Positions 1 to 44,107 of a DNA stretch of 64,000 bases are shown here, one piece after another. Below the pieces are notes generated by a model. The model saw only the letters and a program-made list of their open reading frames with translations, did not search any database and was not told the origin of the DNA. The first letter of the stretch is position 1. Each line of letters opens with the position of its first letter. Both the position numbers and the translations under genes were made by a program. The stretch lies in the NCBI GenBank assembly GCA_016748015.1, contig JAAOMT010000718.1:648586-712585 (forward strand). The letters are read 5' to 3'. The stretch is from Geosiphon pyriformis. Taxonomy: Eukaryota; Glomeromycota; Glomeromycetes; Archaeosporales; Geosiphonaceae.

Positions 1-2382
1 AATATTATTGATAGAAAAAAATTCACTAGCAATATTAAGAGCATACTGTGTGGAAGCCTGGCAATCTCCTACCTAAATTGTATCATTTACAAAAGCACCA
101 GCAGCAAAAAAGAAGGACATCCCACCACTACTCTCAATTCTGCCAGTTCTTGCCACAAACTTAGTGTCAATCTTGTATCCACACAAATGTTCATGCCGTT
201 TGATCTCACACAATAGTGAATTATAGAAGATTCTCCAAAAAAGAGGAGAGAAAACCTCACCTTGATTCAAACCATTGTGCACATGATAGCCATCTGACAG
301 ACCAAAATCTGTCATGACCTTGTTAACTCTATTATTGTGTATGCCACTAAAGAAACTAATGAACTTACTGCACATCTTGATGTGCTTCAAGCTCACTTCC
401 AAGTAGTACCATCCAACTGAGTTATATGCTTTACTCATATCCTGCAACACTAACCAAAGTTTTCGATTTTTTTCCAAAGCATCCTCAACTACCGAGCCGA
501 CAGCAAACACTGGAGACTGGATAGACGTACCCTTTAAAACAGAAAAATTATCACCACACAGAACACCAAACTTGCTACAAGCTGACAAAATCCTGTCAGA
601 AAGAACCTTGGAGAGAATCTTCCTGGCAGTCTCGATCAGTGCAATAAGCCGAGTGTTCGTAAGAACCCCATCCCAGTCATAAGGTTTCGGAATCATCGAA
701 ACCTACACTTTCCTCCACAAAGTAGGCATACTCTCAACAACCAGACACGTATTTAACAGCTCCAGAAGGCAACCCAACACCACATCACTATCATGCTTCC
801 ACAGCTCATTAAAAATGCCAGACAAGCCAGCAGTCTTGTCATCAAGCAGACCCTCAACAACTAAGAACAGTTCACCCAAACTGATTTCACGCATTACCCC
901 AGAAAAAACATCATCCCATACATGATCCAGAGATGCATACTGGCAAGCCCAGAGTTCAGACACCACTATAGGCACCACCTGCTTCCTCGTCCATCCCACT
1001 ATAATCTCATTCACTTTAGACTTCACTTCCACAGGTTCCAGAACCAAACCATCATCAACAACCAAATGATCAAGAATTATCTTGCAAAAAGGCTGATCCA
1101 ATACACTCCTTATCATGCTCCCTTTATTAAAAGCAAAACTCTCTATGTGTCTCTCTACAGCTCTCCTAATAGAAACTTCCTCAGCCAACCTCGATTCAAA
1201 CATCTTTGACTTCCTGTATTCTTTGCGATTTGATGACAGGTACTTAAAAAGAACCATACTACTTACATTCAATCTAACCAAATCAGAGAATGCACAAGCT
1301 TTGGCCTCATCCAAAGTAGATCATTTCCTTATAAGATGATCAACTTCAAGCACGTTACTAGCGCAAACCACATCAACAATCTTGGCAATGAGTAAATCCA
1401 ACCCAAAGAACTTTGAAGAATGCTTATTTCTAGAACATTAAAATTCACTAAACCATTGTCTGGAAAAAATCTTATCAGCAGACTCAACCATTACTTTTCC
1501 TAAAATTGTTTACATAGTATCCAAATCACCACCAGCTTTGGCATCAGAGAAGAAGTCCTTGATCAACAGAAGCTTAGCTGAAACACAATTCCTAAACTCA
1601 GACCACTTGGAAGCATCTGCGTCTTTGATCTTGAACTTCCAACGATTCTTGTTAGCCTGCTTGCACAAACTATTTAGCTGAACATCCAAAAGTCTGCCCA
1701 GACCAACTGACACCATGACAGCCTTGTGGTCTGTATCAAAAAATTCTGAGACTGACCCAACCCAATGCTTAGCAACAGCAGAAGACAGATTTTCACTAAC
1801 CAAAATGTAATCAATAGTTTTTTCTATCCCTCTCAAGTTGCTTTATGTAAAAGCCTTTGCCAACTGATGGCCAGCAAGCAAATTGACCAGACCAAGACCC
1901 ATAACTCACACTCCTCCCAGATTCATTTTTGTTAAAATCCCCATCCAAGACAACAAAATTGCTGGCATTAACAGCCTTAGCAATGAATGAATTAACCTCA
2001 GATGCCTGCCTAAAATGAACGCCCAGAGATGCGCCAGCATACAAACCAAGTACAGTTACTGAAAGCTTGCCTTTGAACAAAAGACGCACTAAAATAACTT
2101 GACCAGGGATCTTTTCAATCTTAGAAACATGTCAAACCAATGAACTGTTCATAATAATTGCAACTCCAGCACTAACAAAACTCTTATCCAATCCTGAAGA
2201 AAAAATTTGCACTCCGTCGAACTTATCTGCAATCCATGGCCTAATAGAAGACCTCAACTTTGTTTCCGTAACAAACAAGACCAAATTGCCAGAATTGCAA
2301 TGTCAACGTACAACATCCTCCTGCTTGGCAGGGACATTGATTCCACAAACATTACATGTAGCAAATTTCCAAACCAGACTGC
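1..2382 (-). pseudogene. LINE ORF2 fragment: endonuclease and reverse transcriptase, inactivated
   Basis: Reading leftward from ORF1, an EEP-type (APE-like) endonuclease appears first. ETKL lies near 2255, GDFN near 1935, and the DH signature (DTDHKAVMV) near 1720. A frameshift lies near 1811-1836 and in-frame stops occur in the endonuclease N-terminal part. The reverse transcriptase follows from about 1314, with the conserved stretch MIPKPYDWDG at about 690, motif A (QDMSKAYNSV) near 430 and motif B (GLNQGEVFSP) near 260. Motif C at about 80-90 reads FVND, where the family has two consecutive acidic residues. A TAG follows at 73-75, after which the frame stays open to base 1. Another TAG at 703-705 interrupts the frame upstream of the RT core. 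Confidence 0.85.
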
Positions 2383-4320
2383 TCATTGGGATGAAAGCAG
2401 TAAAGAAGAACCCAAATCAGAACACAAGAGATCCAATCTCGCCAAAACAGAACCAACTAAAGCCTTCAAAGCCGACATTTTAGACTTCAAACCACCCACT
2501 TTGGTGGTCAGAACCTTTGAACTACTTGAACTGAAACCTGCATCCAACTCAACATTTGAGAGAGAGGGAGAGAGTAATGTCAATGTGCCATCCAAAACCA
2601 TATCTGAGTCCAAAACAGGAGCCATAGGTACAGAGCCAACCAAAGAAAGAGTATTAGAAGATGGCACCATAGGCACCAATTCAACAAAATTCAATTTCCT
2701 AAGAATGCCAGAAACCTGGTCAGCCAAAAGTTCAAGAGAGCGCTCCAAAGATGCCAACTGAGCATCCAAGGGAGACTCATCAATTGGGGAGGAGGGAGCA
2801 CTACCAACCAAATCCGAAGCACCTGACAAAGAGGGGCCAAAACCAAAACCAGAATTAGAGGGAGAGCCACCAGCAGAGGAAGCAAGAGAGACCACCTGAG
2901 CCCAAGATTTGCCACCAAAGGCAGCAGAGTGAGAGATAGAAACATTTTTTTTTACATATAACTTGGCTAAATGAAAACGATCCACACTGAAAACATGTCT
3001 TTCTTTTTTCAAAGCAATAGAAGGTGCAGGAACAGAAACATCAGAAGCATCACATTCCAAGACTGAGTGTTCAAATCTCCCACACTTTTCACACTGAACC
3101 AAGCCTAACCTAGCCCAAGAAAGTCTCACACTGCCAAAAATTGGTTCCGTGCAAAAAGCAGCTTCCAGCTTCTCCTCAGAATCAAAACCAACCACAGCAC
3201 AGCAAATCCTATTGCCTGTTTCAAATGACTGATTGATAATGCAAGTTTTCTTATCAGTCTCCTTTAACAGATTGCCAAAATTATGAGCTGTTGTTCCTAC
3301 TGGCAAAGTAAACAACAGTGCTCTGAACTGATCTCTAGAAGTCCAAGTCTTGCAATCTCCCACAGCCATAGTCATATGCACCAAATCTTTCCTGATTAGG
3401 AATGACCACTTAGAAGCCAATTGCACTGCCTGTTCCAATTTGGCAAACTCAACCACAGCCTTCTGCCATAGCCCAACCAGTTGTATGTGGATCGACTTAA
3501 TTTCTCCAAATTCAGTTACTGCGGTAATGATCATGCCTTTAGGCGTATCCATGGGAATTTTCTTGATTATTATGGTCCGATCTGAGCAAATTTCTTGTCT
3601 TTTGAGATCACTGTTTACAATGATTCCCTTTTTCCTAGTCAATGATGCAGCTCTTTCCATGTTTTTTTCTGACATGAATGTAGATCTGATGATCCCTTCA
3701 AATTTTGAGGGGGTAGTAGCCCCCCCAAAACCATTGATTCCTGAAAATAATTTCCTTATGACCTGAGTTTTGGCCGTTGCCAATTTCCTTTCTACAGCCA
3801 AAAGATTAATGTCCAAAGCAAATGATTTTTTCATGGTAACTTTCACTTGAGTTTTAATGATTTTGGGATCCACCCACACCTTATCCAAAGAGAAAGACTT
3901 ATGAGGAGGAGGGGAAACTTCCTTTTCTTCCTCCATGTCATAATTAATAGAGCCAAGAGGGGAGCCGACAGTTGCACTATTATTGAAACACTTGGCTTAA
4001 GGTGTATTCATCCTGGAATCAGGTACTTCTTTACCTTTGGAAGCTTCTCCATCAGTATCCATGTCATTAAACTGCCTGACCACACGACCAGACCCACCAC
4101 TTTTGAGAATTGCATCACTACTTGAGAACTTGGTACCACTGGAGAGTTTTTTGATTTTATGACCTAAATCACCACCAACTGAACCAGTAGTTGAAACTCT
4201 GGCTGACCTTCTCTTAACACTAGGGCCACTCATAATGGCAGCTGGACTGACAACGAAAGGGTTTGTTTCTTGTAAAATGGTGGAAGACAGTATATAAAAA
4301 AACAGAAAAACTTTTTTCAA
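2383..4320 (-). pseudogene. LINE ORF1 (RRM-like fold plus CCHC zinc knuckle), one in-frame stop
   Basis: The frame is about 645 codons long. It starts with ATG near 4320 and reads to a TAA at 3994-3996, followed by 20 further codons in the same frame into a 517-residue open stretch ending at 2383. A single nonsense change therefore splits an otherwise intact ORF1. Around 3480-3580 an RRM-like segment begins with IIIKKIPMDTPKGM. A CCHC knuckle of spacing C-x2-C-x4-H-x4-C (CEKCGRFEHSVLEC) sits at about 3058-3100. The C-terminal third is Ser/Leu-rich. LINE ORF1 proteins of this kind bind the element RNA and chaperone target-primed reverse transcription. No host function is inferred. Confidence 0.85.
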
Positions 4321-4914
4321 AATTTTGACTCTTTTTCAGGAATTTGAGATGAAGGAGAGAAAAAAGTTTTTTGTAGTTAAGCAAGTAAAATTAAAAATAA
4401 TGTAATTGAAAATAGTAATTTAATATTTGTTTTTTGTTTAAATATTTGCAAATATTTAACTGTAATTTGAGAAATATTGTAAGTAATTCTGAAGTTTGCT
4501 TTTGTCTTTGTTTTTTTTTACTGTTTTTTGGTTCAAATTTTAAGTCAAAAAAAATTTTAAGTTATATTAAGTATTTTTTTTCACAATATTAAATAATATT
4601 AAAATCAAGTTTTTAAAAATAAGTATCAGATATTTGGTTGTTGAAATCTTTAATACTTAAGTAAAAATAGTGTAACAAGTTTTTATATAGTTTTTTTTTA
4701 ACTTTAAATATGTTGTAATCTTTAAAAAAGTAGTTATTAATACAATTTTTAATATATTAGTAAAGTGTTTTTTTGAAAATTTTAATTTTATTCAAGATGT
4801 TAAATTTTTGTTTGCAATAAATGTAAATTGATTGACAATATTCTAAAGTAGTTATGTCTGTTAAAGTTGTCATTTTGAAGTTGTTGTTATATTAATTTGT
4901 AAAAAAACACCAAA
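4321..4914. other. AT-rich spacer upstream of LINE ORF1
   Basis: No coding signal is visible. The sequence is dominated by A/T runs and may include the former 5' UTR of the minus-strand LINE followed by host or relic DNA. I see no tRNA, promoter motif or repeat I can name. Confidence 0.5.
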
Positions 4915-36284: not shown

Positions 36285-36560
36285 GTTTCCAAATTTGCAG
36301 ACTGTATTTATACAAGTGAGGGCGCGCATTATCACACAGCAAGAAAGCCCCAAAATTTTTGCATAAAGTAGGTGACTCACACTGTATTTGTGATACAACA
36401 TATATGATGTCATCCTTGATTCTCTGGCGCGTATGTGAAAATCTACGCGCCTAACTTGGAAGCCGTATTAACTTCTTTTGAAAACTCTTTTGCACACGTT
36501 ACGGACACGCGGTCCCTTCTTTTGATAGTATTGTCGTGTTAAGAACCTGGAACTCCCAAA
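36285..36560. promoter_or_regulatory. Divergent S18m/RAD54 promoter with GGCGCGTA...TACGCGCC inverted repeat
   Basis: A perfect 8-bp inverted repeat, GGCGCGTA at 36426-36433 and TACGCGCC at 36444-36451, is separated by 10 bp, and another GGCGCGC lies near 36320. Both arms contain CGCG cores (ACGCG, GGCGC) resembling MBF/E2F-type G1/S sites. This fits the regulation known for RAD54-class genes but is only consensus-based. Confidence 0.45.
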
Positions 36561-39500
36561 ATGGCTCACCAACTTAATTTCAAGACTCCTTTTAAAACTC
36601 CTTTTAACAAAAATGTTGTGAAGCCTGCCGAGAAAGAAGAGAAATCTCGCTGCATTCCCTTTAAGCCCAAAAAGATACCTGCGCAAACAGTACCTGTAAA
36701 AAGAACAAGACACACTTATGTCGACGAGAGTGACGAAGAGCAAAATTCCTCAGATGGAAGTGATTATAATTCCGAGTCAGCCTATTCAGAAAGCGACAAA
36801 GATAGCGATACCGATGTTAAACGTCCTCGAAAAAAGACGAAAGGCTCTCAAATTCAAAAAGCCCGAGTTCCATTAGCTAAGCTCTCGACCAGAAGTAATA
36901 ATGCTTCAAAGAATACAAAGTCATCGATACCTTTGATTCATCATGATCCAATCAAGACACTTACCTCGAGATTTAAGATCCCAACCTTTAAAAGCAAAGG
37001 GGACGGTCAACAACCGATCCCCTGCGAAGAAAATAATGACAATCAAAAGACTTTAGGAATTCGTCGAAGACCTTTTCTTGCAACCAAAGCTTTATATGAT
37101 CACACTGCAGAAAATGCTCTCGTTCTTCATTCTCCCTCTGAAGAGGAAGAGCAAAAAGTAGTAGAAGTAAAAGAAAAAAAGGAAAAAACCTTGGGAGAAA
37201 TTTTGGGAGTCGTTATTCCAAAGAATGAGAACAAAGTCCATGTAGTTTTAGGTAAGACTGTTGGTTGTCAGAATCGCAATAATTTGCGGGATCTATAACA
37301 GACAACTGTATTTTCGAAAAAGATCCTAGGCTTACCGCAAAATTGCGCCCCCATCAGAGAGAGGGTGTAAAGGTAAAATAACTTTTCTCAAACACATTGC
37401 TTAATCTATTTGAACATTTTTTACGTTATTTACATTCTTTTTTCTCTGAAAAAGTTTCTTTATGAATGCACAACTGGAAGGGTGGTACCGAATGCCTATG
37501 GGTCAGAATTCACAGACTGAACAATTGACATCATAAATCACAATGAAAGGAGACTAATAAGTTTTTCTTCAAATAGCTGTATCATGGCCGACGAAATGGG
37601 TTTGGGCAAAACTGTAAGCTATATTATGGATATTTCAGTATTCTAGACAATTGACAAAAAAAAATTCTCGCATACTATTTCCGGTATTAGCTGCAATGTA
37701 TCGCCCTGATGTGGACTTTGCTTCGCCAATCCTCAGAACCGAACAAGGGTACGATTGAAAAATGTATTATCGTATGTCCTTCTAGCTTGGTACGCAATTG
37801 GGCCAATGAAATCGGTAATATATTATCTTCTATTACCGAAGATCTCATTTTTCATAACTTATATTTGTGGATATTCTTCTAAATAGTGAAATGGCTTGGT
37901 CCCAATGCGATCAGGCCTTTGGCCATGGACAGCAAGGGTACCAAAGAGAATACAATCAATGAGTTGCGGAAATTCGCCAATGCCCAAGGTCGAATGATAA
38001 TGAATCCAGGTAGAAGATTTTGTCTCTATTTCTTTTATTTTTCGGAAGTTTCATAGACATTCGGGCTCTTTCGTATCATTCTGGGAAACTTTATCAAGTA
38101 TTGATCATTTCATACGAGACGCTTCGTATCAATATATCCGAACTTTCTAATGGGGAAATTGGGCTGTTGCTTTGCGATGAAGGACATCGATTGAAAAATT
38201 CAGGTGGTTTACAAGTTCCTATAATTTTTTTTCTCAATACAATGCTAGACAGAATGTAAATTTCTACTAAATTGCTAAATATTTTGTAGATTCGTTGCTG
38301 TTTCAAGCTCTGAATTCTCTTAAAGTACAACGTAGGGTGATTTTATCTGGCACGCCAATTCAAGTATAATAATTAAAGATAATTAACCAAAGACACTCCC
38401 AAGATAAAATTTTTACAATATTATTCTTTAATTTCAGAACGATCTCTCCGAATATTTTTCCTTGTTGAATTTTGCCAATCCTGGGCTTTTGGGAACCCCC
38501 AGTGAATTCAGGAGAAATTACGAAAACGCCATCATACGTGGTCGTGATGCCGATGCTACTGACCGAGAACGCGAGATTAGTGATCAAAAGCTTTCAGAAC
38601 TTTGGGGGGTTGTTAGTAAATTTATAATTAGGCGAACCAATGATATTTTATCCAAATTCTGTAAGTGGATTTTGCTGAATTTCGTAATCCTGCAACTTAT
38701 TTCACCTTTTACTCCATCCATTTTAGTGCCTCCCAAGTATGAACATGTTGTTTTTTGTCGCCTAAGCAAATTCCAACTTGCGCTTTACAATTTATTCGTG
38801 ACATCACCGGAAATTCAACGCTTACTTCGTGGCGTGGGATCCCAACCTCTCAAAGGTTTTTCATGACCTTGTTTATAGCTCTGTCTTTCAAACACGCTTA
38901 ACCAAATTTAATCTCGTTCCTCAGCCATTAATATCTTGAAGAAATTGTGCAATCATCCTGATTTGCTTAATTTACCTGATGATTTACAAGGATCAGAAGA
39001 TTTATATCCAACGGGGTATTCTATCAAAGAAAAAATGAGGACTGTTAGGCCAGAATTTTCTGGTAAAATGATGGTTTTAGATAGGTTGGTATATATGTGT
39101 AATCACTAAACTGATTTATATAATAAAATATTAAATTTCTCACAAAACGCACTATTCACAGGATGCTATCAAAAATTAAAGAAGAGACAGATGACAAAAT
39201 TGTCTTGATCTCTAATTACACCCAGACTCTCGATTTATTTGAAAAATTATGCCGAAACAGAAAGTATGAGGCATAATCTTTTGTTTTTATAAGATTTATG
39301 GTTTAAATATTCATTTATCGCAGACATCGTTTCCTGCGTTTGGATGGAACAATGAGCGTTCCAAAACGACAAAAGCTGGTTGACAGATTCAATAATCCAG
39401 AGGGCCAAGAATTCATCTTTTTACTAAGTAGTAAAGCGGGTGGTTGTGGCCTGAATCTTATAGGGGCAAACCGACTGGTTTTATTTGATCCAGGTAAGCA

Positions 39501-40257
39501 AACAATAAAAAAGCAAATTTGATTAATCAAAATTTAACCAATTATTTTTGATTTTCCTGTATTCCAGATTGGAATCCTGCGGCCGACCAACAGGTTTTTC
39601 TGTTTTGTTTTGTTTTTTAATTTTTTTTGTCAAATTCCTATTAATTCAGAACTTTTATTTATTAGGCATTGGCAAGAGTATGGAGAGATGGCCAAAAAAA
39701 AGAATGTAATTAAAAAGCTCATTTTACTTTGATAATAGCACTTAATCATAAAAACATTAGACACAAGTTTTAATGGGTGCCCTCAACGTTGAGAATTTTA
39801 TTTTTATCAGGTTTCATCTATCGATTTATCAGCACAGGATCAATTGAAGAAAAGATCTTTCAACGTCAGTCACACAAGCAATCACTTTCCTCTTGTGTGG
39901 TGGATGAGGAAGAACATGTCGAACGGCACTTTTCCGGGGAATCATTAAGACAATTGTTTCGATTCAATGGGAATACTGATTGCGACACACATGGAACCTT
40001 CAAATGTGGAAGATGTCAAAATGGTGTCCAAGCTTCACTAAGTTTAAACATGAATTACGGTGATTCTAGCTCGTAAGTTAAAACATGTTGAATCAAAATT
40101 TTGCATTTGGCTAAACCTTTCAAATATCTGTAGATGGGATCACTTTACAGGAGGCAATGATTTAGTTAAAATCAATGATATAATGCTGAAAGAAGAAGCA
40201 AATCGTGGAACAGTTTCCTTCGTTTTCCAATACAATTCGAAATATGGTAAAAAGTAA
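36561..40257 (+). CDS. RAD54: RAD54 DNA-dependent ATPase / recombination translocase
   Basis: Seventeen exons were resolved: 36561-37251, 37302-37372, 37455-37501, 37577-37613, 37691-37814, 37887-38009, 38099-38203, 38290-38363, 38438-38660, 38727-38855, 38925-39084, 39162-39263, 39324-39493, 39568-39593, 39666-39705, 39811-40072 and 40134-40257. They total about 835 residues. The N-terminus is basic with an acidic [14 protein letters not shown] patch. SNF2 motifs follow: [15 protein letters not shown], Walker [27 protein letters not shown] ([12 protein letters not shown]), [55 protein letters not shown], and the C-terminal Rad54 zinc-finger-like [12 protein letters not shown]. Rad54 remodels DNA with Rad51 in homologous recombination. 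The terminal exon may splice once more at 40254 (GTAAGT), which would add only one residue. Confidence 0.95.
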
Positions 40258-40671
40258 GTATTGAAACATTACCCGTATTTATTTTCTTGGATCTATGGTA
40301 ATCTAATAATTGTTATGTGCGGCATTCTATAACAGGTCGTGAATAAGAAAAGCTTTTATACGAGATAAAGTGAAAGAAGGTGGCTACTGGCCTGTGATGA
40401 TTAAACATGGAATTTGACATGTTGAATTTTATAGGGTAGTTGCTGAAAATTGTTCTTAATGTTTTTGGCTATCCCGAAACTATCCTGATCAGAAATGTCC
40501 ATTTCGCCACCTCATTTTCATTTATCTATTAATGTCTGTGGAAACTCACTTATAATCCTTTACTAAAAGCATTGTAAAATTGTAATTATGTGATAGGATC
40601 TTGACCATTGGATATTCCCTGTACACATGTGGTCCCACTTATCAAAATGCTTGATTCTTTTTTGATGTAAT
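40258..40671. other. Convergent 3' flanks of RAD54 and ATG9
   Basis: This is about 410 bp of moderately A/T-rich sequence between two stop codons, with no other feature. Confidence 0.6.
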
Positions 40672-43600
40672 TCATATTGCGGATTTATCCAACTCATAAA
40701 ATTGATTAAGTAAATTAAAGATTCCTACTTGTCGTGGTCGATCTTGTTCCATTAATACATCATTCCCAGATTTGGCACCCGTTAAAAAGTAAGAATCACC
40801 TAATTCACTCTCATAATTTTCTTGAGGCGAATGCGAAGAATTTAACTGTTCTGTTGTTCCGATGACAACATTTTTTCGAAGCGTTGGACCTTGTGGAGAG
40901 TCGGACGGGCCATCTTCTTGCAGCAATGAATCAATACCAAACCCAAGACTAGAACGACGCGCATGAGGGGCGTTAATGTGCCCTTTTGAAGTCCCGAAAG
41001 GTATATTGCTCCCGCGACGATTATTTCGAAGAATCGAATCAATACCAAACAGGCGTGTGTTACTGGTGCGCTCAGGATTGATTTGATTATTAAATTCAGT
41101 CAGGCGAGTAAGATAAGCAGACCCAGTAGGATCTGTAGGTTCCCAATCAGGATGATTCGCCTGTGTGTAAAACAATGAAATGTTTTTGTTTGTTTGTTTG
41201 TTTGTTGTTTTGTTTGTGAGCTATTGATATAATGATGTAGAAATGTAAAAAAATGATATATGGAAGTTTACCTTGAAATTCAAAAAGCTCTTTTCCATCT
41301 TTCCTTGGTTTGAAATATAATATTCGTTGGCAACTTCAGTTGGGGCGCCATACTGGGATAAGCATTCATATTGGTAAGCTGAATTGGAACCAAACATGCA
41401 AGAAGATAAAGGAGTTATGAAAAAATTTACCTTCACATTCCCATGTCGCTTGAAATCAAATACTGCAAAGCTGCAGACGTAACCGACTCCTTCCACATGT
41501 AGAGTGAATTCACGGAAAAAGTCCACGATCTTTTGTAAGTATAAAGTTAAGGAGGTCTTGAAAGATTGAAGGAAAAAGAAATTGGATGCTTGCAAAAGTA
41601 TTTCAAAGGATATCACTACAATCTGGCAAAGAGTACCACAATATAAGTGGGGTGAAAATGACGCTGACAATTTCTTGGATAAAAAGAATCACTTTCATGT
41701 CAAATAGTTGAGCAAATCCTTTGCGGACCTATAAATGTATCAATAGGTAAGGTCCAACTTATCGGATGAAAAAATTAATAAATAAAGCTGTAAAAATGAA
41801 GAAACCTTCTCAGCATGCAAATCTTCTCTCCAATCATCGGGCAAATAATGAGTGTATTCTATAACTTCCTTCAGAATCATTTCAGGATCAAATACCGAAT
41901 GTTCATCTGGGATCAGACCACGGCTAACATGCAAAATGGTACCACATAATCCGAGGTAAAAAATAAGGGTACGTTCAGGCGTGATCTCAAATCTAAATAG
42001 CTCGGGATCGATCACGGTAGCCAACAGAAGAATAGCGGCAAAAGATCCAGCAATAAATGAGACAAATCTTTTTTGATAAAAATTCAAAAGATTACATAAT
42101 AATCAAAACGCGTTCCTCCAACCAACCAACCAACCAACCAAAAAAAAGCCTCACCTGGCAACCAAGACAGATTTCTCTTTTGGAAATTGATTGATATATT
42201 TCATAGCGGGTTCATAGCTATTATTTAGCCTTGTTTGGAATAGGTGGGGCAATTCATTAAACTCACGAAACATCCATCGGGCAAAAGGTGACCATTGGCG
42301 AGATCCGATTGAACTGGGGTTCTTGTGATATTCCTTGTTAAATTACCAGGGAAATTATAAATTATGATTAATGAAATTTAAAGTGAACCGAACCAAGCAA
42401 CCGACCGACCGACCAACCATGTAAAATCAAAGCAATCTCGGAAAAGTAATGATAATATGAGACTTACATCAAAATATCTGAAGAAAAAGAACATGAGAAG
42501 ATAGACAACAATAAAGGGAGCAAAAATAAGGTTAATCCAACCCATAAGGACAAATCGGTTGCTCAATCTATAAAAATTTGATTGTAAAAAAACTATTAAG
42601 AGGCCAATAGCAAGATGATTATTTGAGATATGATTTTGAGATGAAAGTTAAAATTTATGCATATGTGAGTACCCTTTGGTTAATTCTTCTTTCGGAACAT
42701 CCTTGAGATATTTCTTTTTGACTTGACCCTCATCATTAAAGGCATAATCCATTATGCAAAGGTTCAGGTTCCATTCAAGTGTTTTTGTTAAAATTTGTTG
42801 TCGATTCAAAAAGGGAAGGGGAATAGTAAGTTTCAATATATCCTTGTTTATGAGGGCAATTAAATAATTTTCTTGACGCATAATTCTATTAGCAATATTA
42901 TGAGCGTCAAGGCGTTGTTGCGGTTGATCTTGGGTCAAATGATAGACTTGATGACTAGTGGTGGGATTGTTGTCCCGAAGTCTTACTATTTGATTGACGA
43001 TTCTTTGCCAAGATACAGTTTGGATATCATCCTATGTAGGGCGCGAATTCGAAGATTTAAATCAGATGACGAGTTGAAATAGAAGACTGAGGAGGAGATA
43101 ACTTACGTCAGGGATTTCCAACAAATAAGTGTAAAAGTTGAACATATCGTTTAACCGACCAATATCCAATATTAGACGAAAGACTTGGTAGACAAAAAAG
43201 CAGCAGAAGATGGTTACAAAAAATTGACTTAATCCTGATAACCTAGCCAAATTGTAATAGAAAATTGTAAGGACTTGAAACAGGTCAAGTCAAATATAAT
43301 GATGATTTTTTCCTGAAAAATTACCTGCTAAAACATTGAGCAATTACCACTTCAGATAATTTTTTGCTATGTCTAATTGACGAGTAATCAACACAACCGA
43401 TCAGAAATACCGAGAATCCTATTACGAAACCCAATTGCCTGAATCGGGAGAAAATCTAGAATTATTTCTAGGAAATAAATGAGATAAATTGACAAATAGC
43501 GATAAAAACTTACAACAGGCTCAGAACTCTATTCAACAAGATGCAATTCATGCCTTTACCAATGTAATAAGCATATACCTAAGTTAAAAGTATTAATGAT

Positions 43601-44107
43601 TTTCTTGATGTATTAGGGTGTAATGAAAAAGCAAAAGTAAAAAGTTTTTTGATACGCTACCTGGCCAAGAAATGAGTCCAGATTCTCCACATTAGCCCAT
43701 TTCCACATTGTGAGTTCTTTCATGATCTCCTTTTGTGATCTCGTATTGGGCTGTTGCCTTTGACCTTGGTTAACAAAATTCCAACCAGGAGCTGGTGTCC
43801 CGCGACGATCATCCTCTGGGTTATTGCGAGGCATTTCAACCATTAGTGAGGCGGGAACTTCTTCCTCTTCTCCTTCTTCTTCTTCTTCTTCTTCTTCTTC
43901 TTGGAAATCACCAGTGGGTAAAGGTTGATAGATGGGCTGTCGGTTACCAGAGAAATTTTTAAATGGAGATGCATGTGAGGTCGGTTTTCTTGAAGAGCTA
44001 GAGTTTCTCGTTGGTTTTATTGAATAGCTCTCTGATAAATTTTCTTGGTCCTCGTGAAGGGTAACATATGCGGATTCATTAGGCTGAGGTCGATTTCTAT
44101 CTGCCAT
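40672..44107 (-). CDS. ATG9: Autophagy lipid scramblase Atg9
   Basis: Twelve exons (44107-43661, 43578-43514, 43438-43325, 43242-43107, 43031-42673, 42567-42468, 42333-42155, 42067-41806, 41728-41614, 41534-41431, 41352-41272, 41160-40672) give about 816 residues. APG9-domain hallmarks include [114 protein letters not shown] and ANHPDWEP. Several membrane segments lie between about residues 190 and 620. The cytosolic N-terminus carries an uninterrupted Glu-rich tract. Atg9 vesicles seed autophagosomes. The exon 9/10 join uses an AT-AC, U12-type intron (separate entry). All other introns are GT-AG. Confidence 0.95.
41535..41613 (-). other. U12-type AT-AC intron in ATG9
   Basis: This is a 79-nt intron. 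The donor is G|ATATCCTTTG (minus strand, first base 41613), an exact match to the U12 AT-AC donor consensus. The branch-site-like TCCTTAAC lies at 41553-41546, and its second A is 12 nt from the 3' end. The acceptor is TTAC|AAAAG, last base 41535. The join gives [15 protein letters not shown], as expected for Atg9. No GT-AG pair in the area restores the frame. Confidence 0.85.

What the first reader, a model, noticed from the sequence alone, without database searches (positions are those of the whole stretch)
41535..41613. U12-type AT-AC intron in fungal ATG9
The minus strand shows donor G|ATATCCTTTG, branch-site-like TCCTTAAC, a 12-nt branch-to-acceptor distance and an AC acceptor. These are all the hallmarks of a minor-spliceosome AT-AC intron in one 79-nt stretch. 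The join restores the conserved [12 protein letters not shown] segment, and no GT-AG or GC-AG alternative is in phase. Most fungi have lost the minor spliceosome, while some early-diverging lineages are known to retain it. A standard GT-AG gene predictor would break ATG9 here.
Basis: partly seen in the sequence, partly recalled or inferred. Interest (0 to 1): 0.85.

Follow-up and report, generated by a model that had tools for sequence, protein, structure and literature searches.

The report
Fungal ATG9 minor-spliceosome AT-AC intron
The autophagy gene ATG9 of this probably early-diverging fungus is interrupted by a textbook intron of the rare kind removed by the minor spliceosome; its genome carries RNAs and several proteins of that machine, so the find is real but belongs to a kind already reported from fungi.

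Summary
On the minus strand, window 41613..41535 is a 79-nt, phase-1 AT-AC intron in ATG9, with a 9/9 minor 5' splice site, an 8/9 branch site and 12 nt from branch A to the 3' end. Removing it gives an 816-aa ATG9 that aligns without a gap across the join to S. pombe Atg9 and human ATG9A. The other 10 introns are GT-AG. The 124.7-Mb genome holds candidates for U11, U12, U6atac and (below Rfam's cut-off) U4atac, plus U11-48K-type, PDCD7 and CENATAC/CCDC84 pieces. Fungal minor introns with all four snRNAs were published for Rhizophagus in 2023 (PMC10639083, passages): a new member of a known kind. Unexpected is a subtype skew: a strict AT-AC pattern hits 8 places, 7 of them credible introns; the matching GT-AG pattern hits none; a laxer one gives one credible intron among 9 places. 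Splicing itself was not observed.

The parts
40672..44107 (-). ATG9 gene, start to stop codon, 12 exons, 816 aa
   Evidence: exon join; S. pombe Atg9 E 3.7e-150; 8 PF04109 pieces, all here
41535..41613 (-). AT-AC minor (U12-type) intron 9 of ATG9, 79 nt, phase 1
41605..41613 (-). 5' splice site ATATCCTTT
   Evidence: 9/9 to RTATCCTTT; the other 10 ATG9 introns match 4-6/9
41546..41554 (-). branch site CTCCTTAAC, branch A at 41547
   Evidence: 8/9 to TTCCTTRAC, 12 nt from A to intron end
41535..41536 (-). 3' splice site AC
41614..41728 (-). exon before the AT-AC intron, ends ...LPDCS plus G, first base of the split codon for E
   Evidence: gapless to S. pombe and human
41431..41534 (-). exon after the AT-AC intron, begins with AA, the rest of the split codon, then KIVDFFREF
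43579..43660 (-). intron 1, GT-AG, phase 0
43439..43513 (-). intron 2, GT-AG, phase 2
43243..43324 (-). intron 3, GT-AG, phase 2
43032..43106 (-). intron 4, GT-AG, phase 0
42568..42672 (-). intron 5, GT-AG, phase 2
42334..42467 (-). intron 6, GT-AG, phase 0
42068..42154 (-). intron 7, GT-AG, phase 2
41729..41805 (-). intron 8, GT-AG, phase 0
41353..41430 (-). intron 10, GT-AG, phase 0
41161..41271 (-). intron 11, GT-AG, phase 0

Best explanation
The 79-nt segment is a U12-dependent AT-AC intron of ATG9. Shown by sequence: consensus donor, branch site, spacing and acceptor; a join that restores the conserved Atg9 core; and a genome that encodes minor-spliceosome RNAs and proteins. Inferred by analogy with animals and plants (recalled mechanism): U11 pairs with CCUUU of the donor while U12 pairs with UCCUUAAC, leaving branch A 41547 bulged; U6atac then replaces U11 at the donor after U4atac unwinds; and the machine joins G41614 to A41534. 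Retention would truncate ATG9 at 595 aa, so full-length ATG9 should depend on minor splicing.
For: Motifs and phase. Gapless homology over the join. Rarity: one strict match in the window, 8 in the genome against 1 for the reversed control. Other genomic matches lie in real genes: the RAD2/XPG join (L020) is gapless to yeast RAD2. A calcium-channel-like join (L022) aligns across the join to human L-type alpha-1C at E 1.3e-5, with a 3-residue gap about 13 residues upstream of it. Vac14 and Det1 family matches over cut-off, and an NRDE-2 match below its cut-off (27.4 against 34 bits), lie beside three others. Minor snRNAs: U11, U12 and U6atac above cut-off, U4atac below. The candidate U4atac and U6atac pair at -30.8 kcal/mol against -14.4 (sd 2.9) for 500 mononucleotide shuffles of the U6atac piece, 1 of which reached it; one pair that is G-C in the Rfam consensus is A-U here. 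Proteins: CCDC84/CENATAC pieces, PDCD7, U11-48K-type finger.
Against: No transcript data. U4atac is below Rfam's gathering score. SCNM1's zinc finger was not found, though nothing rang in the controls either. The U11-48K finger hit is weak (E 7.2e-4), and its model also rang in one control genome, an archaeon. On the human ATG9A segment some 82-nt removals score slightly higher (176 against 172), and on the S. pombe segment one removal shifted by 1 nt (GA-TA) scores 193 against 190; none of these has the minor donor or canonical ends.
Confidence: 0.95

Rival explanations
1. A U2-type (major-spliceosome) AT-AC intron, like intron 21 of human SCN4A.
For: AT-AC termini alone do not decide the pathway (PMC2831892, passages).
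Against: The U2-type AT-AC introns of sodium channel genes have G at +5; here +5 is C and all nine donor letters fit the minor consensus, with a minor branch site at a fitting distance. The genome has minor snRNAs.
Confidence: 0.02
2. An ordinary GT-AG or GC-AG intron with other borders, the AT-AC motifs being chance.
For: In-phase open alternatives exist: 20 GT-AG and 6 GC-AG.
Against: The best, of 31 nt, keeps 54 intronic nucleotides and scores 157 against 190; it ranks 497th of 7,373 open removals. It also ignores a motif set found once in the window.
Confidence: 0.02
3. Retained segment, assembly error or decayed gene: no intron is removed here.
For: No RNA data were available.
Against: ATG9 is otherwise open through 12 exons (816 aa), and it is the only ATG9 place found in the genome (8 pieces). 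Retention ends the frame four residues into the segment's reading (DCSDIL*). The segment carries the full set of minor signals.
Confidence: 0.01

Closest known systems
Minor introns of Rhizophagus irregularis and Basidiobolus meristosporus (Larue and Roy 2023, PMC10639083; passages read)
   Same: Fungal minor introns with animal/plant-like donor and branch motifs; for Rhizophagus all four minor snRNAs and a bias away from phase 0.
   Different: ATG9 does not occur in that paper's text (0 occurrences); its supplements could not be read here. 205 minor introns were reported for Rhizophagus; here only those fitting strict patterns were counted, and they are mostly AT-AC.
U12 introns of Phycomyces and Rhizopus (Bartschat and Samuelsson 2010, PMC2846911; passages read)
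   Same: Minor introns in zygomycete fungi, AT-AC subtype included.
   Different: There the subtypes are about even in Phycomyces (8-9 AT-AC, 8-12 GT-AG, by method); here strict patterns give 7 credible AT-AC and 0 GT-AG.
AT-AC-rich minor introns of Blastocystis sp. subtype 1 (in PMC10639083, passages)
   Same: AT-AC as the commoner subtype (196 of 253 there).
   Different: Blastocystis minor introns average just under 42 bp with 49% in phase 0; the 7 here are 68-79 nt and their best joins are in phase 1 or 2.

Membership tests
U12-type (minor) AT-AC intron | 5' splice site ATATCCTT(T) | tested here: met
   9/9
U12-type (minor) AT-AC intron | branch site near TTCCTTRAC | tested here: met
   8/9, CTCCTTAAC
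U12-type (minor) AT-AC intron | short branch-to-3' distance, about 10-15 nt (range recalled) | tested here: met
   12 nt
U12-type (minor) AT-AC intron | AC at the 3' end | tested here: met
U12-type (minor) AT-AC intron | removal restores the reading frame and a conserved protein | tested here: met
U12-type (minor) AT-AC intron | genome encodes minor snRNAs | tested here: met
   U11, U12, U6atac above gathering score; U4atac full length but 43.7 against 53 bits
U12-type (minor) AT-AC intron | genome encodes minor-spliceosome proteins | tested here: met
   3 of 4 families tried: CCDC84, PDCD7, U11-48K-type finger; SCNM1 finger not found
U12-type (minor) AT-AC intron | splicing depends on the minor spliceosome | not testable with these tools
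   needs RNA and a block of U12 or U6atac
U12-type (minor) AT-AC intron | same intron position in orthologues | not testable with these tools
   no eukaryotic gene models held; an ATG9 scan of genome contigs (prokaryotes) found no relative
U2-type AT-AC intron | G at donor position +5 | tested here: not met
   +5 is C; criterion from PMC2831892 passages
ATG9 (PF04109) | match to the family over its length | tested here: met
   8 exon pieces marked over the cut-off; phmmer E 3.7e-150 to 7d0i

The most novel reading that the evidence does not exclude
This fungus keeps a minor spliceosome that serves mainly AT-AC introns, with CENATAC, the factor that favours the AT-AN subtype in human cells. GT-AG minor introns are nearly gone, so core genes such as ATG9 hang on the AT-AC branch of minor splicing. 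ATG9 intron retention could then act as a switch on autophagy.
Probability: 0.35. Interest if true: 0.5.

Novelty: new member of a known kind. Interest (0 to 1): 0.3.

Why it matters
It gives a clean, checkable minor intron in a core autophagy gene of a fungus. It also warns that GT-AG-only gene finders will break ATG9 there. If the subtype skew is real, the genome is a natural system for asking why AT-AC and GT-AG minor introns are treated differently and what CENATAC does outside animals.

Tried and rejected
Rejected: canonical alternatives and U2-type AT-AC (C at +5). A further minor intron in the window was sought with a lax scan. It gave 10 rows, of which only the ATG9 row combined a 9/9 donor with an 8/9 branch site; five shuffles gave 2-8 rows on one strand.

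Led nowhere: Rfam on the window, no match; ATG9 relatives in genome contigs, none; VAC14 fragment against PDB, none; naming the species through '406 contigs' papers, none of the 6 listed fits by its listing; SCNM1 family; 'minor spliceosome' with 'early-diverging fungi', 0 papers; ATG9 with 'minor intron', 1 paper, unrelated by its listing; 'U12-type introns' with 'Mucoromycot', 2 papers, seen as listings only.

Of the 8 strict AT-AC places, L019 was dropped because its reading frame runs open through the supposed intron. L023 has no family match over a cut-off. Of the 9 lax GT-AG places (L031 and L032 overlap), only L033 gave a convincing join (TRAPPC8-like by recall). L027 was mis-indexed because its locus ends 55 bases past the match; it gave an open join with no homology to judge it by, and is counted as not credible. 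The reversed control of that pattern gave 22 places, so the lax GT-AG count shows no excess.

The count of upstream elements against shuffles is not used: its pattern did not match U12's upstream as written and was chosen after looking.

Full report
WHAT WAS CHECKED. ATG9 lies on the minus strand, window 44107..40672. Joining 12 exons gives 816 aa. Against solved structures the best hit is S. pombe Atg9 (7d0i, E 3.7e-150, 505 bits; species name recalled), followed by human ATG9A (317 bits) and ATG9B (248 bits). All eight PF04109 pieces found in the genome lie at this one place.

THE INTRON. Intron 9, 41613..41535, is 79 nt and interrupts a codon after its first base. Donor ATATCCTTT matches the minor consensus 9/9. 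The branch site CTCCTTAAC matches 8/9. Branch A 41547 is 12 nt from the last intron base, and the end is TTAC. The other ten introns are GT-AG, match the minor donor at only 4-6/9 and lie in phase 0 (six) or 2 (four), so intron 9 is the only one in phase 1. The alignments to S. pombe and human run without a gap over the join. With the segment retained, the frame ends in DCSDIL*, a 595-aa product lacking the last 221 residues.

ALTERNATIVES. Between the neighbouring introns there are 20 GT-AG and 6 GC-AG open in-phase removals within the limits set. With wider limits, 7,373 of 10,710 frame-keeping removals are open and 31 of these have canonical ends. The best canonical one scores 157 against the S. 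pombe segment and ranks 497th, while the AT-AC removal scores 190. A GA-TA removal shifted by one base scores 193 because the coded residue changes from E to Q, and 82-nt removals score 176 against 172 on the human segment. None of those has the minor donor or canonical ends.

THE MACHINE. Rfam models find one match each in the genome at E up to 0.001 among the candidates scored: U11, 80.9 bits (cut-off 39); U6atac, 70.9 (33); U12, 55.1 (53); and U4atac, 43.7 (53, so below its cut-off, but full length 1-132). U12 holds GTAAGGA, complementary to the branch site with one A bulged; U6atac holds AAGGAGAGA; U11 begins TAAAAGG. The candidate U4atac and U6atac pair strongly (-30.8 kcal/mol; mononucleotide shuffles mean -14.4, sd 2.9; 1 of 500 reached it), and one pair that is G-C in the Rfam consensus is A-U here, which supports both. 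The pairings of U11, U6atac and U12 with the intron (-7.8, -6.5 and -8.0 kcal/mol) were computed without controls. Proteins: three CCDC84/CENATAC pieces on one contig, PDCD7 (U11-59K by recall) and a CHHC finger of the U11-48K type. The ORFs beside that finger look like U11-48K, by recall. SCNM1's finger was not found, without any positive control. The tool's 14 control genomes gave 0 for the four RNAs, CCDC84 and PDCD7, and 1 (an archaeon) for the CHHC finger; what the other control genomes are was not shown. CENATAC promotes AT-AN minor introns in human cells (PMC8280824, passages).

OTHER MINOR INTRONS. The strict AT-AC pattern hits 8 places in the genome against 1 for the reversed control. 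Seven give open joins of coding sequence: ATG9; RAD2/XPG (gapless to yeast RAD2, E 1.2e-32); a calcium-channel-like gene (E 1.3e-5 to human alpha-1C; Pfam Ion_trans below its cut-off); genes with Vac14 and Det1 matches over cut-off and an NRDE-2 match below cut-off nearby; and L023 without a family name. The best joins of all 7 are in phase 1 or 2, as expected of minor introns, and all have T at donor position +9, which the pattern did not require. The eighth, L019, lies inside open coding sequence and is taken as chance. The corresponding strict GT-AG pattern hits 0 places (reversed control 2). A laxer GT-AG pattern hits 9 places, fewer than its control of 22, and only L033 gives a good join. 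Human minor introns are about 69% GT-AG and 24% AT-AC (PMC8280824, passages), and Phycomyces is about even (PMC2846911, passages). Against even odds, 0 GT-AG of 7 has a probability of 0.008, and 1 or fewer of 8 (counting L033 from the laxer pattern) 0.035 (own arithmetic). The skew is therefore suggestive only. It rests on short introns with perfect donors, and GTATCTTT-like donors were not counted.

WHAT IS KNOWN. Larue and Roy 2023 reported 205 minor introns and all four snRNAs in Rhizophagus irregularis, 249 minor introns in Basidiobolus, and no convincing minor introns in Ascomycota and Basidiomycota (PMC10639083, passages). Searches for ATG9 with minor introns listed no paper that describes this intron; supplements could not be read. 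The kind is thus known, and only the particular intron and possibly the skew are new.

VERDICT. A genuine minor AT-AC intron, with confidence 0.95 short of RNA evidence. It is of modest interest because the lineage-level fact has been published.

Noticed in passing
L009, L010, L012, L013 (own genome; U12, U6atac, U11, U4atac): The four minor snRNA candidates have a CCNAYAAT-like element (CCATAAT in U12) starting 63-67 bases upstream and a TATA-like box starting within 26-37 bases upstream, which suggests a shared snRNA promoter. Noticed after the fact, no sound control.
   Followed up: partly
own genome, L017-L024 and L026-L034: Minor introns fitting strict patterns are AT-AC (7 credible) rather than GT-AG (0 strict, 1 in a laxer pattern).
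   Followed up: partly
L022:1501-1573 +: A calcium-channel-like gene of this genome has an AT-AC minor intron between the last membrane segment and an EF-hand-like stretch; animal voltage-gated channel genes also carry minor introns (PMC6865273, passages). Positions were not compared.
   Followed up: partly
window 73..4335, minus strand: Row of ORFs resembling a non-LTR retroelement (by eye; no family search was run on them) beside the gene-rich part.
   Followed up: no
window 36543..40672, plus strand facing ATG9: ATG9 is convergent with a Rad54-like gene (Rad54_N and SNF2 matches); an ORF at 39774..40076 may be its last exon (by eye).
   Followed up: no
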